Shown one piece after another: positions 4,367 through 11,362 of a DNA stretch of 64,000 nucleotides. Within the stretch, counting starts at the first letter, position 1, and every line of letters starts with the position of its first letter. A model generated the notes under the pieces. The model was not told the origin of the DNA and did no database searches. It saw only the letters and a list, made by a program, of their open reading frames with translations. This stretch comes from Dethiosulfovibrio peptidovorans (lineage in GTDB: Bacteria; Synergistota; Synergistia; Synergistales; Dethiosulfovibrionaceae). The position numbers and the translations under genes were made by a program. The DNA is taken from NCBI GenBank assembly GCA_002748665.1, contig PDTB01000016.1, positions 56,659 to 120,658 of the forward strand. The letters run 5' to 3'.

Positions 4367-5293
4367 CTATTGTCTCTCCTCTCTCTGACAGTACAGGCTC
4401 ACCATCTCGACAACACCCCGAGCCAGGTCATATTTGGGACTGAAGCCGAGTTTCCGCAAGATGGAGACGTCCAAACATTTTCTGGGCATGCCGTCGGGCA
4501 TGGAGGAATCCCAGAGGATATCCCCATGATACCCTGCCGCCTTTCGGACGGTCTCCGCCAGCTGGGCAATGGTGACGTCCTCTCCACTGCCCACGTTCAC
4601 GATACCCGGTCCCTCCCACCGGTCCATGAGAAGCATGACCGCCTCTGCCATGTCGTCCACATGGAGAAATTCCCGTCGAGCTTGTCCTGTTCCCCACAGG
4701 GTTACGGTCGGGGCGCCTTTTTTCTTTGCCTCGACGAAGCGTCTGACCAGGGCGGCGATGACGTGCGCGTTTTCCGGGTCAAAGCTATCCCCCGGACCAT
4801 ACAGATTACAGGGCATAACACATAGCCCACTGATTCCATACTGTTGTACAAGATATTGAACCAATCGGAGACCAGCGATCTTCGCCAGTGCGTAGCCTTC
4901 GTTGGTGGGCTCCAGAGATCCCGTAAGTAAAAAATCCTCTTTCATCGGCTGAGGGCATTCTCTGGGGTATATGCATGAACTCCCCAAGAAGACCAGTTTT
5001 TTCACGCCGTTTTTGGCCGCTCCGTTGATGACGTTGTTCTGGATTTGGAGGTTTTCATATAAAAACCCATACGGATCGGCAACGTTGGCCCCAATGCCTC
5101 CCACTCTGGCCGCTGCAAGGACAACCACCTCGGGCCGGTTTTCGATAAAAAAATTTTCCGTCGCTTTCTGATCCAGCAAATCCAGTTCACGACGGGTTCT
5201 CGTCAGTATATCCCTGATTCCCCGATCTTTCAGGGCACGAACGATGGCACTTCCTGCCATACCCCTGTGACCGGCTACGTAGATTTTTTTCAT
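4367..5293 (-). CDS. GDP-4-keto sugar epimerase/reductase (GDP-L-fucose synthase or GDP-L-colitose synthase ColC)
   Basis: A 308-residue short-chain dehydrogenase of the GMER/Fcl family. Seen: NADP-binding GHRGMAGSAI at the N-terminus, SSCIYP with the catalytic Cys, YALAK (the Tyr-x-x-x-Lys pair), MPCNLYGPGDSF and an AHVIAALVRRF segment with the second catalytic residue (His). The enzyme epimerises C3/C5 or C5 and reduces the C4 ketone of a GDP-4-keto-6-deoxyhexose. ColC and fucose synthase share these motifs, so the sequence alone does not separate them; the ColD-like gene directly downstream favours colitose. I chose ATG 5293 (MKKIYVAGHRG), 8 bp after the nuclease-like gene, over an upstream in-frame codon that would overlap it. 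Confidence 0.85.
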   Translation of the reverse strand: MKKIYVAGHRGMAGSAIVRALKDRGIRDILTRTRRELDLLDQKATENFFIENRPEVVVLAAARVGGIGANVADPYGFLYENLQIQNNVINGAAKNGVKKLVFLGSSCIYPRECPQPMKEDFLLTGSLEPTNEGYALAKIAGLRLVQYLVQQYGISGLCVMPCNLYGPGDSFDPENAHVIAALVRRFVEAKKKGAPTVTLWGTGQARREFLHVDDMAEAVMLLMDRWEGPGIVNVGSGEDVTIAQLAETVRKAAGYHGDILWDSSMPDGMPRKCLDVSILRKLGFSPKYDLARGVVEMVSLYCQREERQ

Positions 5294-5301
5294 GAGTTGG
5301 A

Positions 5302-5808
5302 TCACTTCCAAAATTTTGGTTCAGCATCGGGATCTTTATTGCTCTGTATTTTAGGATGAGGATCGATGGACCTCAGGCTTTTTTTAAGAACCTGATAAAA
5401 ACGAGCTCCATCAATTACAGGAGGGAAAAGACGACTTGGATTTTGAGGTTGTTCCAGATGAAAAATAACCCGTATTTTTTTAGCGCCTAAACACTTCTTT
5501 GCCATCTTTTTTTCCTCGAAATTATTCGCATTCAAAGAGGCAGGAAGAAGGGCCGACAGGGTTCCCAGAACCTTATTTATGATGACATCCTGAATTGGCA
5601 CATCGTCTTTCCTGCGATGAAATCGGTAGTCCTTGACCTCGATCAAATAGAGCGTTCTGCCCGGACTCAACGCGATCAGATCCAGAGCTTTGATACCATT
5701 CTTCATCTTTGAAAAATGTTTCCTGTAAAATTTCCAGTCGTCGAATTTTGAGACCTTCCAGTCATCAGGAAATTCAAAGCTCAGAGAGTCCACCTGATAT
5801 CGTGTCAT
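5302..5808 (-). CDS. Hypothetical PD-(D/E)xK nuclease-like protein paired with an AAA ATPase
   Basis: I do not recognise this 168-residue protein by family. It contains the spacing of a PD-(D/E)xK nuclease core: Asp43 in a hydrophobic strand (ALDLIAL), then Glu57-Val-Lys59 in LYLIEVKDYR. The rest is rich in Lys/Phe/Trp and ends in a charged tail. ATG 5808 overlaps the stop of the ATPase gene by 4 bp (ATGA), implying translational coupling and a joint function. The pair interrupts the deoxy-sugar genes and looks AT-richer than manC or gmd. An ATPase plus nuclease of this size resembles two-gene anti-phage modules, but no known system name is assigned. Nuclease activity is an inference from the motif alone. 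Confidence 0.6.
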   Translation of the reverse strand: MTRYQVDSLSFEFPDDWKVSKFDDWKFYRKHFSKMKNGIKALDLIALSPGRTLYLIEVKDYRFHRRKDDVPIQDVIINKVLGTLSALLPASLNANNFEEKKMAKKCLGAKKIRVIFHLEQPQNPSRLFPPVIDGARFYQVLKKSLRSIDPHPKIQSNKDPDAEPKFWK

Positions 5809-6857
5809 GACTCTTCCTGCCAATCCTCTGAAAGATAACGATTCGACTGGTCAACATTCTCATCAAGGGAGACCAGATGTTCTATATCGTCGATTGAATC
5901 TCCCTGTTCTACAACCACACCACTCTCTTCTCCGTGCAAGCCTATAAACCTGACAGGGAGTTTTTTATAAGCATTTTTTTGCAACGCCAATTCTCTGAGC
6001 AGAAAAAGGTCGTGAGTTGCCATGAAAACCTGCACACCATACTTACATAGATTCAGGGTTGTCTTAACGATCAACTTTACCAACCTGGGATTGAGGTTCG
6101 CTTCCGGCTCGTCCCAAAAAAGGCAGCTATTTTTCCTGAGGCCACCGGATGCCACCAGATGAGCGACCATTGCAAGTTTTCTGTGCCCTTCCGCAACAAG
6201 ATGGATCTCCATCTTGCCGTCTTTTTTTTGAATGTAGAAGCGTCCGTCCGAAACGATGAGTTTTCCCGACATCCCTTTCTCCAGGGGATCCAGAATTCCC
6301 CGCATGAACGCATTCCTGGGACCCTTCATGAGAGGAGTACCCAACAACAGACACGTATCCCTCCAGGTCTCTTCAAATTCCAGGTAATGCCTTTCGTACG
6401 TTGACACGAAATTGGGGTACAGGGACATCAGTTCTCTTGTAGGGAAAAAGAGTGGCTCCGTATCGCTCCACGATAAAGGAGCCTTCTCGACCGAGACTTC
6501 TGTTTTACTGTTTGATGCAAAGCCACACGAGAGATCGCAAGAAGAATTCGTGAACCGAAGCGAGATATCGCATCTGGCTCTGCCCTGACGACGTCGGGTC
6601 AACCTTCCCAAATTTTCGGGTCGAAAAACACCCACCAATTTTTCAGCAATAGCCATCTGGAGGTATTTTTTAGACGGGGCTTCTCCCTTGAACTTACGTC
6701 TTCCCTCGGCCAGTACAGCCGAAAGGCTATAAGCGACCTTAAGAAGGTGGCTTTTACCAGTCCCGTTCATACCAACGACAACGTTCAATTTAGGGGAAAA
6801 ATCAATCTGTGCTTCGGAGAAAACGGTGAGATTTTTTATGGTAAGTCCTTTAAGCAC
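5805..6857 (-). CDS. AAA family (RecF/OLD-like, AAA_15/AAA_21 type) ATPase
   Basis: A 350-residue ABC/SMC-type ATPase. Seen: the N-terminal LKGLTIKNLTVFSEA strand pattern of RecF/OLD-like ATPases, Walker A GMNGTGKS (residues 29-36), an AEGHRKLAM segment in the signature position, Walker B CLFWDEPEANLNP, and a switch histidine in FMATHD. No TOPRIM domain is visible, unlike true OLD nucleases; the nuclease function may instead reside in the coupled downstream gene. Translation starts at GTG 6857 with a GGAGGGAG box about 8 nt before. It lies 24 bp after gmd, so it is probably read on the O-antigen transcript. Members of this ATPase class recur in phage-defence operons, but a defence role here is inference. 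Confidence 0.8.
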   Translation of the reverse strand: MLKGLTIKNLTVFSEAQIDFSPKLNVVVGMNGTGKSHLLKVAYSLSAVLAEGRRKFKGEAPSKKYLQMAIAEKLVGVFRPENLGRLTRRRQGRARCDISLRFTNSSCDLSCGFASNSKTEVSVEKAPLSWSDTEPLFFPTRELMSLYPNFVSTYERHYLEFEETWRDTCLLLGTPLMKGPRNAFMRGILDPLEKGMSGKLIVSDGRFYIQKKDGKMEIHLVAEGHRKLAMVAHLVASGGLRKNSCLFWDEPEANLNPRLVKLIVKTTLNLCKYGVQVFMATHDLFLLRELALQKNAYKKLPVRFIGLHGEESGVVVEQGDSIDDIEHLVSLDENVDQSNRYLSEDWQEES

Positions 6858-6881
6858 AACAACTCCCTCCTTCAGGCTACA

Positions 6882-7976
6882 TCATGTGAGCTCTTCTATA
6901 GCAGGACAGATCGTATAGCCGGCATCTCGACAGAGTATGTCTTTCTGAAAGAGGTCCAGATCATGAGAGACCATTTCCGCCACGAGGTCCTCGAAGGAAA
7001 CTTTTCTCTTCCAGCCCAATTTTTCTCTGGCTTTGCTTGGATCCCCCAGAAGGAGCTCGACCTCGGTAGGCCGAAAGTACCGGGGATCGACCTCGACCAA
7101 GGTCTCCCCTGTCTCGGAGTTCAGTCCTTTTTCGTCGACACCGGTACCACTCCAGGTCAGGTGTATTCCGGTCTTTTCGAAGGCAAGGTTCACAAATTCC
7201 CGAACTGAGTGAGTTTCCCCCGTGGCGATGACGAAGTCATCCGGTTCATCCTGTTGCAGCATAAACCACATAGCCTCGACGTAGTCTCGGGCATGTCCCC
7301 AGTCCCGCTTAGCATCCAGGTTACCCAGGTACAGTTTACTCTGAAGTCCAAGGGATATCCGGGCTGCCGCTCGAGTGATTTTTCTGGTGACGAAAGTCTC
7401 TCCCCGAAGGGGCGATTCATGGTTAAAGAGGATACCGTTGCAACCGTAGATACCGTAAGCCTCCCGATAGTTGACGGTGATCCAGTAGCCGTAGAGTTTG
7501 GCAGCTGCATAAGGACTTCTGGGGTAAAAGGGAGTTGACTCTCTTTGAGGAACCTCCTGGACTTTGCCATAGAGCTCACTCGTGGAGGCCTGATAGAAAC
7601 GGGTGGAGTCCTCCAACCCGAGGATACGAATGCCTTCCAGGAGACGCAGGACACCCAAGCCGTCTCCGTTGGCCGTGTATTCCGGGGTCTCAAAGGAGAC
7701 TTTCACGTGGCTCTGGGCCGCCAGGTTGTAGATTTCGTCAGGTTTGATCTCCTGAAGAAGCCGAACGATGTTGGACGAGTCGGTGAGATCACCGTAGTGA
7801 AGGACCAACCCTCGCCCCTCCTCGTGGGGATCTCGAAAAAGGTTGTCAATCCGTCCCGTGTTGAAGAGGGAGGAGCGTCTTTTCATCCCGTGAACTTCGT
7901 ACCCCTTATCCAACAAGAATTTGGACAGGTACGCTCCGTCCTGACCGGTGATACCGGTAATGAGAGCTTTTTTCAT
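6882..7976 (-). CDS. gmd: GDP-mannose 4,6-dehydratase
   Basis: This 364-residue NADP-dependent extended SDR converts GDP-D-mannose to GDP-4-keto-6-deoxy-D-mannose, the branch point for fucose, colitose, perosamine and rhamnose. Seen: [10 protein letters not shown] at the N-terminus, [16 protein letters not shown] (a GMD-specific NADP-phosphate motif), STSELYG, catalytic YAAAK, and [14 protein letters not shown]. The length matches the family. ATG 7976 overlaps the stop of the upstream GT4 gene by 4 bp. It feeds the reductase and ColD-like dehydratase encoded on the other side of the ATPase-nuclease pair, so that pair splits one pathway in two. Confidence 0.95.
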
Positions 7977-9013: not shown

Positions 9014-10176
9014 CGCCAGTTCTCCAGGATCCACCGAGCTGCCCGACGGGCTTCGTTGAACTGAGGCGGCTCGGCGACAAAAGACTGAAGAAAAGAGCGC
9101 CAAGCTGCCACGTCAGAGGGCATCTCGGCGATAAGCCCCCTTTCGATAAACTGATCGATCATGCGGTCAAACCGAGGCGCCCCCCAAAGAGACCTCTCGG
9201 ACAAAAGCCGCCACCCTACCAGGCGTTCCGTAAGCCCCTGGAGGATTCGCCGCCACCCTTTTTTTCGTCCCACTCGCAAAAGATACACATTGGTGCCGGC
9301 AGTGGCCGCCTCGGATATCATGGAGACCGAGTCCTCGGTACAAAAGATCTTCTGACAAGCTCCCAAGATACCAGGGACCGGGTTGTCGTCGCTCTGAGAT
9401 GCTAAAAGAAGCATGGCCACCCGGTCGTTGCCCTGACAGAGAGCCTTCAGTCGGGCCTCGGTTGCGGGAGAGGTTCGGCGAGATGTCGTGATGTACAGAG
9501 AGACTTCCCGATCCTCGGCGATACGGAGCAACTCACCCACGATCCTATCGGTCCAGAGAGGGGACAGACGGTAGTTCTGGTCGTCTCCTCCCACGAGTAC
9601 TCCCCACCGAACGTCATCTCCCGGGTAGTCGTTCAGCATTTCCTGAGCCTGATCGGCTAGGTTAGAACGGTTCACCGAGTTGGGAGCTCCCAGGGTCTCC
9701 AGGATTCTTCCGTTTTTGGTCCCATCGTGAGAGGGTACCACAGCATAATCGAAAGGAGAGGTCCCGAGTATGGACGGCGTCATAAGGGTACAACTCTTAC
9801 CTCCCATGGCTCGAGCCAGGGCGAGGGTAAGAGGGGCGGCCGAGCTTCCGGCGGAGATGACCAAGCTCTCCTTACCGGAGACGCCTCGTTCGTCCAGAGC
9901 CATGCGATATCGACTCAAAAGCGTCTGAGCATCGCTCCCAGCAAAACGAAGCCACCGTCGCGCTTTAACGGAACCAGCTCTGAGCAGAGCTCTCCCCAGA
10001 ACTTTAAGCACCCAAAACCGACGACAGCCCTTGTAGGACGGCACGTTCATCTCGACTGAGAACGCCCCACAGAGTTCCGCTAAGTGAGATGCGACCCCCC
10101 GGCTTTGAAAAAGGTGTCCCCGGATTCCATCGGAGAGGATGACAACAAGGGACGGACCTTTACTACCTGTCGTCAT
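9010..10176 (-). CDS. ELM1/GtrOC1-like putative glycosyltransferase (DUF1022)
   Basis: A 388-residue protein of the ELM1 (mitochondrial fission ELM1, DUF1022) family, which in bacteria occurs in envelope loci as predicted GT-B glycosyltransferases. Seen: N-terminal LSDGIRGHLFQSRGVASHL (family pattern DG..GH..Q..G), WGVLVGGDDQNYRLS in the middle, an LYITTSRRTSP strand and a C-terminal CTEDSVSMISEAATAGTNVYLL segment, the family's T.DS.sMisEa motif. It overlaps larC by 14 bp upstream and the GT4 gene by 4 bp downstream. The biochemical reaction is not established; the family assignment is more secure than the function. Confidence 0.75.
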   Translation of the reverse strand: MTTGSKGPSLVVILSDGIRGHLFQSRGVASHLAELCGAFSVEMNVPSYKGCRRFWVLKVLGRALLRAGSVKARRWLRFAGSDAQTLLSRYRMALDERGVSGKESLVISAGSSAAPLTLALARAMGGKSCTLMTPSILGTSPFDYAVVPSHDGTKNGRILETLGAPNSVNRSNLADQAQEMLNDYPGDDVRWGVLVGGDDQNYRLSPLWTDRIVGELLRIAEDREVSLYITTSRRTSPATEARLKALCQGNDRVAMLLLASQSDDNPVPGILGACQKIFCTEDSVSMISEAATAGTNVYLLRVGRKKGWRRILQGLTERLVGWRLLSERSLWGAPRFDRMIDQFIERGLIAEMPSDVAAWRSFLQSFVAEPPQFNEARRAARWILENWR

Positions 10177-11362
10177 CGCTCCATCCTCCCAGTTCCGAGA
10201 TCAGACGAGCTCGAAGGTTCATCAACGGCATGGCATGCCTTTCCGCGAGGAGTTTCAAGTCGTCGTACTCCAAGGTACGCTTGAGGAGCTGATCGCCCCA
10301 ATATGATCGTTTCACCCGGACAGGACCCATAGAAGACTGAAAGACACCCTCATCCCGCCGAAGAATGTAGCGTTGTTCCCGTCGACATCGAAGACCGATA
10401 GACGTAGAGTAACGAAGGATGATCTCCGCCATGCCCTGTTCACCTTCGAGGGGGCCAATACAGGTAATTCGAACTCCGGGGCGTTGTTTTTTCATGATGA
10501 CAGGGGTGAGAAAAACATCCCATGCCCCAGCCTCGAAAAGACGATCCATAAGTTCTGAGAAATCCTGAGGAAGCATGTCGTCCACGTTGGCCTCAAGAAC
10601 AGACGCTTCGCCAGAGATCCAGGGACATGACTCCAGTCGCTCATCGTCCAGATCGACAACCGTGGCTCGAAGCACGTTAGGAAGGTCGGTCTCGGCGTCG
10701 CCCAGTCCGTAGCCGGTCGCGACGATCCGTCCCGATGGCATAGGCCCATACCGACAGTCCGTACTCCGCAGGATAACGGCACCTGTGGGAGTGGTCCGCT
10801 CCATGGGAGCCCCCAGGACCGTCACGGGAGCACCCTCCAACAGGCGGGTCGTTGCAGGCGAAGGGACGGGGAGGATCCCATGGGCACAGGAGACCGAGCC
10901 GGAACCAACGTTGACCGACGAGGCATATACCTGATCGACCCCCGCCAGATGAAGGGCCGAGAAGGCCCCCACGACATCCACGATGGAGTCCACCGCTCCG
11001 ACCTCGTGAAAATGGATGGCCTCAACGTCCACCCCGTGAACCGAGGCCTCGGCCTCGGCCAAAAGGCAAAATGCCCGGATCGAGCCGTTTTGGACGTCCT
11101 CGGGAAGATCGGATTTATGCAAAATATCCAGAATGTCGGAAAGATGTCGGTGACCGTGATCCCCCTCGGCGCAGACCGTAACATCCGTACCTGCCAAAGC
11201 ACCGCGTTGCCCCTTTTGAACGGACAGTTCATAGTCCGTTAGAGCCAAACCGGAGAGGAGTGAACGAAAGTCGTCGAGAGAGAAGACGTTCAGGTCCAGC
11301 ATGGCCCCCAAAAACATGTCACCGGCGATACCGGCGAGGCAATCCAGGTACAGAGCTCTCAT
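10163..11362 (-). CDS. larC: Nickel-pincer cofactor nickel insertion protein LarC (DUF111)
   Basis: This 399-residue protein matches LarC, the CTP-dependent cyclometallase that inserts nickel into the thiocarboxylated pyridinium cofactor (NPN) of lactate racemase and related isomerases. Seen: N-terminal LYLDCLAGIAGDMFLGA, a His-rich GDHGHRHLSDI segment, IHFHEVGAVDSIVDVVG, PTPTGA-like TTPTGAVIL, and a C-terminal LEANVDDMLPQDFSELMDRLF block. LarC of Lactiplantibacillus is made by a programmed frameshift; here the frame is continuous. No larA, larB or larE is visible in the window, so the client enzyme must be elsewhere or the protein serves another epimerase. It is embedded between Kdo and glycosyltransferase genes with overlaps on both sides. 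Confidence 0.85.
   Translation of the reverse strand: MRALYLDCLAGIAGDMFLGAMLDLNVFSLDDFRSLLSGLALTDYELSVQKGQRGALAGTDVTVCAEGDHGHRHLSDILDILHKSDLPEDVQNGSIRAFCLLAEAEASVHGVDVEAIHFHEVGAVDSIVDVVGAFSALHLAGVDQVYASSVNVGSGSVSCAHGILPVPSPATTRLLEGAPVTVLGAPMERTTPTGAVILRSTDCRYGPMPSGRIVATGYGLGDAETDLPNVLRATVVDLDDERLESCPWISGEASVLEANVDDMLPQDFSELMDRLFEAGAWDVFLTPVIMKKQRPGVRITCIGPLEGEQGMAEIILRYSTSIGLRCRREQRYILRRDEGVFQSSMGPVRVKRSYWGDQLLKRTLEYDDLKLLAERHAMPLMNLRARLISELGGWSDDDR

What the first reader, a model, noticed from the sequence alone, without database searches (positions are those of the whole stretch)
5302..6857. ATPase plus nuclease-like gene pair inserted between pathway genes of the O-antigen operon
Seen: an AAA/RecF-like ATPase with intact Walker A and B and a small protein with D43...E57-x-K59, coupled by an ATGA overlap. 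They lie between gmd and the reductase gene that uses its product, are AT-richer than manC/gmd, and have no role in sugar synthesis. Known: ATPase plus PD-(D/E)xK nuclease pairs form several anti-phage systems (PARIS, Gabija and OLD-like are related in design). Inference: an undescribed defence or mobile-DNA-control module carried in a variable surface-sugar locus and expressed from its promoter.
Basis: partly seen in the sequence, partly recalled or inferred. Interest (0 to 1): 0.7.

Follow-up and report, generated by a model that had tools for sequence, protein, structure and literature searches.

The report
HEC-02 defence pair inside O-antigen operon
Two neighbouring genes, an ATPase and a small probable nuclease, form a candidate virus-defence system already listed as HEC-02; here the pair sits seamlessly inside an operon for making a cell-surface sugar, and between two sister species it has been exchanged as one block.

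Summary
In detail: a 350-aa ABC/RecF-type ATPase (5805-6857 -) and a 168-aa protein with D43...E57-V-K59 (5302-5808 -), joined by an ATGA overlap, lie between gmd and an fcl-type gene. They are not undescribed: PADLOC-DB lists them as HEC-02 (E 1.5e-138 and 1.2e-48), a candidate named for embedding in Hma systems. New here: (1) relatives sit inside Hma and BREX operons, but also between housekeeping genes: gmd|fcl in this genus, guaB|guaA in another bacterium; related genomes show the empty sites. (2) Between two sister species the pair differs at 9 of 1590 sites against 531 of 9211 in the flanks: it moved as a block, probably by homologous recombination. (3) The small protein resembles NERD-type PD-(D/E)xK nucleases by profile; no fold could be predicted. 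(4) The nuclease gene is broken or missing beside an ATPase in eight loci; no reverse case was seen. One homologue fuses a TIR domain to the ATPase and its partner lacks the catalytic Lys. Most likely an ATPase-gated anti-phage nuclease; activity untested.

The parts
5302..5808 (-). small nuclease-like protein, 168 aa (PADLOC PDLC04145, HEC-02A)
5805..6857 (-). ABC/RecF-type ATPase, 350 aa, GTG start (PADLOC PDLC04146, HEC-02B; Pfam AAA_21/AAA_15)
5805..5808 (-). ATGA stop/start overlap coupling ATPase and small protein
6750..6773 (-). Walker A codons, residues 29-36 GMNGTGKS
   Evidence: G29, G34, K35 invariant in 25 homologues
6108..6122 (-). Walker B codons, residues 246-250 LFWDE
   Evidence: D249 and E250 invariant in 25 homologues
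5680..5682 (-). D43 codon of the nuclease-like motif
   Evidence: 21 of 22 aligned homologues
5632..5640 (-). E57-V-K59 codons of the nuclease-like motif
   Evidence: E 22 of 22, K 21 of 22; aligned to NERD ExK
6866..6872 (-). AAGGAGG ribosome-binding-like site before the ATPase GTG
   Evidence: sequence
6882..7976 (-). gmd (GDP-mannose 4,6-dehydratase), upstream flank, 24 nt before the ATPase
4367..5293 (-). fcl-type gene (GDP-fucose synthase by position and family), downstream flank, ATG 8 nt after the small gene

Best explanation
The pair is a member of the candidate anti-phage system HEC-02. Proposed working: the ATPase (RecF/Rad50/AriA-like ABC type) binds the small NERD-like PD-(D/E)xK nuclease and keeps it off in the healthy cell; a phage cue, or DNA/ATP state, sensed by the ATPase turns the nuclease on, which cuts nucleic acid and stops infection. 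The pair has no obvious promoter and lives embedded at a gene junction of a host operon, here gmd|fcl of a GDP-fucose/surface-sugar operon, using that operon's transcription and its own ribosome-binding sites. Between species it is carried as one block by homologous recombination through the flanking operon genes. Shown: membership by profile, operon position, empty sites, one block transfer, purifying selection, repeated residence in Hma and BREX operons, several loci with the nuclease broken or missing and the ATPase present. Inferred: transcription from the sugar promoter, nuclease activity, complex formation, trigger, the recombination route, and protection from phage.
For: HEC-02 profiles hit both proteins over nearly full length. 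All 18 loci found with the small-protein profile (10 of 185 and 8 of 398 genomes) have the ATPase directly beside it. Homologues sit between HmaB and HmaC (L044 directly; L022 as two tandem pairs; L049 with two further genes before HmaC) and inside BREX operons (L042, L031, L091, L092, L094, L146, L151). One is on a 23.9-kb plasmid with a type ISP restriction enzyme about 5 kb away. Genus (7 genomes): gmd and fcl adjoin without the pair in G002, G003 and G005; full pair in G000, G001, G006; ATPase only in G004. Block exchange G001/G006. Second housekeeping case: guaB-30 nt-pair-13 nt-guaA in G358; of 29 relatives' loci examined 28 have guaB and guaA within 200 nt. NERD similarity: hhalign probability 77 and 80, score 36-37, best of 30 shuffles about 17. 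Sensor-effector analogy: PARIS AriA sequesters AriB (PMC12409363, passages).
Against: I found no assay of HEC-02 (paper searches; one search listed 15 of 30 papers; the HEC preprint is not held). The fold is not shown, and the NERD alignments cover only 20 (A1) and 44 (A3) columns. HMMER alone gives sub-threshold hits to nuclease families (NERD E 0.019; PDB 4qbn E 1.0 and 1gef E 1.3 on the motif); the top-ranked PDB hits are unrelated proteins (E 0.14 and 0.38). Mrr_cat gives no match. Of the 17 further loci L146-L162, 15 show none of my defence markers, though two of these have a TIR-NACHT gene behind the pair. No record of the 'phages' collection matched the small protein.
Confidence: 0.65

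Rival explanations
1. Selfish addiction module: the nuclease is a toxin and the ATPase its controller; embedding in a needed operon stabilises the pair, and any phage effect is secondary, as proposed for restriction-modification pairs found inserted in operons.
For: Residence between guaB and guaA and between gmd and fcl; broken small genes beside ATPases in L061, L149, L159, L161, L019 and L088, and no partner found in L041 and L090; precedent: PabI restriction pairs inserted in his and glutamate operons (PMC10273834, passages).
Against: Recurrent embedding in BREX and Hma systems fits defence better. The operon exists without the pair in 3 of 7 genus genomes, so the pair is not needed for keeping it.
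Confidence: 0.15
2. Anti-plasmid or DNA-uptake control rather than anti-phage: the complex attacks incoming or foreign DNA.
For: RecF/Rad50-like ATPase plus nuclease-like protein; homologues of the ATPase on five plasmid records, two of them with a small-protein match to P0001, and a recombinase or integrase gene nearby in three of those read.
Against: Presence on plasmids argues against a general anti-plasmid role; no direct data.
Confidence: 0.1
3. A role in surface-polysaccharide synthesis or its regulation.
For: gmd|fcl in this genus; a neuB/neuC/wzt-type locus (L051); directly behind yjbH in L015.
Against: Homologous pairs occur in BREX, Hma and gua operons; genus mates have the sugar operon without it.
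Confidence: 0.04
4. A neutral passenger in decay.
For: Several homologous small genes are broken.
Against: Both frames are open here with catalytic residues kept and signs of purifying selection; recent block transfer.
Confidence: 0.06

Closest known systems
HEC-02 (Hma-embedded candidate 2, PADLOC-DB 2.0.0; the HEC preprint doi 10.1101/2024.01.29.577857 was not read, it is known to me through PMC12988326, passages)
   Same: Both proteins match profiles PDLC04145 and PDLC04146; homologous pairs lie inside Hma
   Different: Here the host operon is GDP-fucose/surface-sugar synthesis, not a defence system; no defence gene seen next to it by eye (neighbours named by Pfam)
PARIS (AriA/AriB)
   Same: ABC ATPase plus a second, nuclease-type protein; AriA profile E 1.8e-19
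   Different: The AriB effector is a Toprim nuclease (PMC12409363, passages); the small protein here has no AriB or DUF4435 match at E<=1
Septu (PtuA/PtuB) and retron-associated PtuA
   Same: Similar ATPase (PtuA E 1e-9) with a second small protein
   Different: No PtuB match for the small protein at E<=1; that PtuB is an HNH protein is recalled
NERD-domain proteins (PF08378)
   Same: D-x13-E-x-K motif aligned, profile probability 77-80
   Different: HMMER match below the curated cut-off (15.9 against 22.1 bits)
Operon insertion of restriction-modification pairs (PabI family; PMC10273834, passages)
   Same: A two-gene defence pair inserted into metabolic operons
   Different: PabI is a restriction glycosylase with a methyltransferase partner; neither is here

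Membership tests
HEC-02 | ATPase matching the HEC-02 ATPase profile | tested here: met
   PDLC04146 E 1.5e-138, residues 1-343
HEC-02 | Small partner matching the HEC-02 partner profile, adjacent gene | tested here: met
   PDLC04145 E 1.2e-48; ATGA overlap
HEC-02 | Family found embedded in Hma systems | tested here: met
   homologous pairs in L044, L049, L022 flanked by Hma genes; not the case for the window copy itself
HEC-02 | Protects against phage | not tested
   bench experiment needed; no assay of HEC-02 found; preprint not held
PD-(D/E)xK nuclease | D...(D/E)xK motif, conserved | tested here: met
   D43 21 of 22, E57 22 of 22, K59 21 of 22
PD-(D/E)xK nuclease | PD-(D/E)xK core fold | not testable with these tools
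   structure prediction switched off
PD-(D/E)xK nuclease | Sequence-profile relation to a known family of the clan | tested here: inconclusive
   NERD hhalign probability 77-80 against shuffled maximum about 1, over 20 and 44 columns; Mrr_cat not matched; HMMER NERD below cut-off. NERD's place in the clan is recalled
PARIS | AriB-type Toprim/DUF4435 effector | tested here: not met
   no such hit at E<=1
Gabija | OLD nuclease fused to ATPase plus UvrD-like GajB (recalled; GajA/GajB in abstract of PMC10822852) | tested here: not met
   350-aa ATPase without Toprim match; neighbours are sugar genes
Septu | PtuB partner | tested here: not met
   no PtuB hit for the small protein at E<=1

The most novel reading that the evidence does not exclude
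HEC-02 is a general operon-embedding immune cassette: without an obvious promoter or transposase of its own it enters gene junctions of defence, sugar and nucleotide operons, spreads between species by homologous recombination through the host genes around it, and consists of a fixed ATPase sensor with an exchangeable effector, as in the homologue where a TIR domain is fused to the ATPase and the nuclease partner has lost its catalytic lysine.
Probability: 0.3. Interest if true: 0.68.

Novelty: new member of a known kind. Interest (0 to 1): 0.5.

Why it matters
Defence searches look in defence islands and in embedded positions of other defence systems. If HEC-02 pairs also hide in ordinary operons (surface sugar, gua), such screens miss them, and the host operon would then set when the defence is expressed. 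The gmd|fcl case gives matched occupied, half-lost and empty sites in one genus, a natural test bed for how promoterless defence genes are gained, exchanged and lost. The single TIR-fused homologue offers a direct test of sensor/effector exchange.

Tried and rejected
Structure prediction: switched off, so no fold search was made; profile-profile comparison used instead. Mrr_cat relation: no match. HMMER against PDB with the small-protein profiles: nothing significant; 4qbn and 1gef fall on the motif but at E 1.0 and 1.3, not used as proof. Small protein in the 'phages' collection: no match; in IMG/VR with P0001 alone: no relative; alignments A4 and A3 found 10 and 2 viral-collection loci, of which L031 and L091-L094 carry BREX genes and may be host DNA.

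TIR fusions: only G250 found in 48 genomes of its class, in 398 of its phylum (where at most 3 candidates a genome were scored and the limit was E 1e-55) and in IMG/VR, so the link between TIR and the lost Lys is n = 1; another Lys change (to Arg, L080) has no TIR. Nuclease loss without ATPase loss: by ATPase search 3 of 23 matches (L071/L149, L082/L161, L086/L159) have only partner remnants or a shortened frame without the motif and 20 have a partner; by small-protein search 0 of 18 lack the ATPase; other cases (L061, L019, L088 broken; L041, L090 no partner found) came by mixed routes. Too few for a firm asymmetry. Whether HEC-02 activity is in print could not be settled: the preprint is not held; Krishnan et al. 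2020 not held; searches gave no description of HEC-02; the one listed paper with the term HEC-02 is, by its title, on hydroxyethyl cellulose.

The context tally used 51 loci with duplicates (L163 is the same plasmid as L041; L092 and L093 almost the same) and markers chosen by me, some taken from the loci themselves (L019, L022, L024, L031, L041, L042, L044, L049, L051, L092); BrxC, PglX or PglZ were then confirmed by PADLOC in L042, L091, L092, L094, L146 and L151. Unlabelled loci are not shown to lack defence genes. Rows dropped before the NERD profile: L103, L105, L106 (no motif or wrong strand read) and L104 (stops in the stretch read); L107 and L108 were not taken, so 6 of 12 NERD loci were used. 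Mrr_cat: 21 of 30 fetched loci used. L144 and L145 (ATPase profile E 3.7e-16, no HEC-02 partner) were left out as not HEC-02. guaA: 30 loci were fetched for 46 matching genomes; one is G358 itself; of the other 29 one (L179) has a gap of about 703 nt.

Full report
WHAT IS THERE. On the minus strand of the window the order is gmd (6882-7976), 24 nt, ATPase (5805-6857), ATGA overlap, small protein (5302-5808), 8 nt, an fcl-type gene (ATG at 5293), a DegT-family aminotransferase gene and manC. The ATPase has Walker A and B; 19 columns are invariant among 25 homologues, including N25, G34, K35, D249, E250 and H282. Of 22 small proteins E57 and K79 are kept in 22, D23, D43 and K59 in 21, K40 in 20. 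The pair has GC 0.454 against 0.542 around it. The genome holds one strong ATPase hit; a second is weak (E 1.5e-5, 40 residues).

WHAT FAMILY. PADLOC-DB identifies both as HEC-02: ATPase E 1.5e-138, small protein E 1.2e-48. HEC stands for Hma-embedded candidate (PMC12988326, passages); the Hma system is described in PMC8565338 (passages). PMC12988326 says several HECs including HEC-06 showed antiviral activity; [quoted passage not shown] I found no assay of HEC-02 in the held library, and the source preprint is not held. Pfam gives AAA_21/AAA_15 for the ATPase and a sub-threshold NERD match for the small protein.

NUCLEASE OR NOT. Profile-profile comparison of the small family with six NERD domains taken from the phylum gives probability 77 (alignment A1, 20 columns) and 80 (A3, 44 columns), score 36-37; the printed A1 alignment puts D43...E57xK59 on the NERD D...ExK. 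Thirty column shuffles reach probability about 1 and score 17 at most; reversed columns score 14 and 10; Mrr_cat and the ATPase give nothing. This favours a NERD-like PD-(D/E)xK protein. The fold itself was not predicted.

WHERE ELSE. In the phylum 10 of 185 genomes carry the small protein; in an even draw from the phylum of L003 (Stakelama pacifica) 8 of 398. All 18 have the ATPase next to it. Among 51 loci examined with a set of marker proteins: Hma genes flank the ATPase in L044, L049 and L022, and Hma fragments precede it in L041 (= L163); BREX genes lie next to it in L042, L031, L091, L092, L093, L094, L146, L151; sugar genes in the window, L017, L018, L061 and L051 (a single sugar gene farther off in L019 and L146). 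PADLOC confirmed HmaB in L044, L049 and L022, HmaC in L044 and L022, HmaA in L049, BrxC and PglX in L031, BrxC in L042, L091, L092 and L094, PglX in L091, PglZ in L146 and L151. The joints are tight: the BrxC stop overlaps the ATPase start by 4 nt in L042, L091, L092, L094; HmaB ends 9 and 8 nt before it in L044 and L049.

HOUSEKEEPING OPERONS. In the window's genus (7 held genomes) the pair sits at gmd|fcl in G000, G001 and G006; G004 keeps an ATPase in open frame followed by the first codons of the small gene and then a different fcl allele (55% identity); G002, G003 and one G005 locus have gmd and fcl directly adjoining. In G358 the pair lies 30 nt behind guaB and 13 nt before guaA (IMPDH and GMP synthase by Pfam); in 29 relatives' loci 28 have the two genes within 200 nt, the two nearest relatives at about 31 and 33 nt. 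So embedding is not limited to defence operons. Operon insertion is known for restriction-modification pairs (PMC10273834, passages).

HOW IT MOVES. G001 and G006 differ at 9 of 1590 positions in the pair and 531 of 9211 in the flanks (Fisher p 2e-26); between the last gmd difference before it (8368) and the first fcl difference after it (10221) only those 9 differences lie, so the tract reaches into both flanking genes. Synonymous differences agree: gmd pS 0.214, ATPase 0.017, small protein 0. Conversely G001 and G004 ATPases (pS 0.716) are more diverged than their gmd genes (pS 0.362). The pair therefore turns over separately from its flanks at one site; homologous recombination through gmd and fcl is the simplest carrier (inferred).

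HOW IT MAY WORK. By analogy with PARIS, where the AriA ATPase holds AriB inactive until a phage protein is sensed (PMC12409363, passages), the ATPase is taken as sensor and gate, the small protein as effector. Supporting, in small numbers and by mixed search routes: the small gene is broken beside an ATPase in L061, L149, L159, L161, L019 and L088 and not found in L041 and L090, with no case in reverse. In G250 (L047) a TIR_2 domain (E 6.9e-17, over the cut-off) is fused to the ATPase and the partner reads EVT in place of EVK; only one such case was found, and L080 has EFR without TIR. In L147 and L149 a TIR-NACHT protein follows the pair or its remnant. Trigger and substrate are unknown.

VERDICT. 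Real, well conserved, a new member of the HEC-02 candidate system in an unusual home. The most interesting part is the seamless residence in housekeeping operons and the block exchange at gmd|fcl.

Noticed in passing
L047:9335-11430: HEC-02 ATPase fused to an N-terminal TIR domain; its small partner has EVT instead of EVK, so the catalytic lysine is gone.
   Followed up: partly
L147:8943-11951 and L149:99-2138: TIR_2-NACHT proteins lie downstream of HEC-02 pairs (intact in L147, small gene broken in L149), possibly a further defence gene travelling with them.
   Followed up: no
L022:4098-7048: Two HEC-02-type ATPases, each with a small neighbour, in tandem between HmaB and HmaC.
   Followed up: no
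L020:8700-12626: The pair is followed, with a 7-nt overlap, by a DEAD-box helicase with an MrfA Zn-binding domain: possible three-gene version.
   Followed up: no
PADLOC-DB 2.0.0 models PDLC04145/04146 against PDLC04213-04230: Labels HEC-02A and HEC-02B appear swapped between models: the small protein hits HEC-02A in one model and HEC-02B in others, the ATPase the reverse.
   Followed up: partly
window 10163-11362: A nickel-insertion (LarC-type) gene, PF01969 E 9.7e-122, sits inside the run of sugar genes, next to a cytidylyltransferase gene.
   Followed up: no
L015:6682-10455: In G026 (and by the same layout G034) the pair lies about 40 nt behind yjbH (PF06082, exopolysaccharide), a second surface-polysaccharide neighbour in this phylum.
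   Followed up: partly
L062 and L063 (G005): G005 has two gmd loci; one adjoins fcl (empty site), the other has no fcl match and, by eye, a shortened manC-like gene.
   Followed up: no
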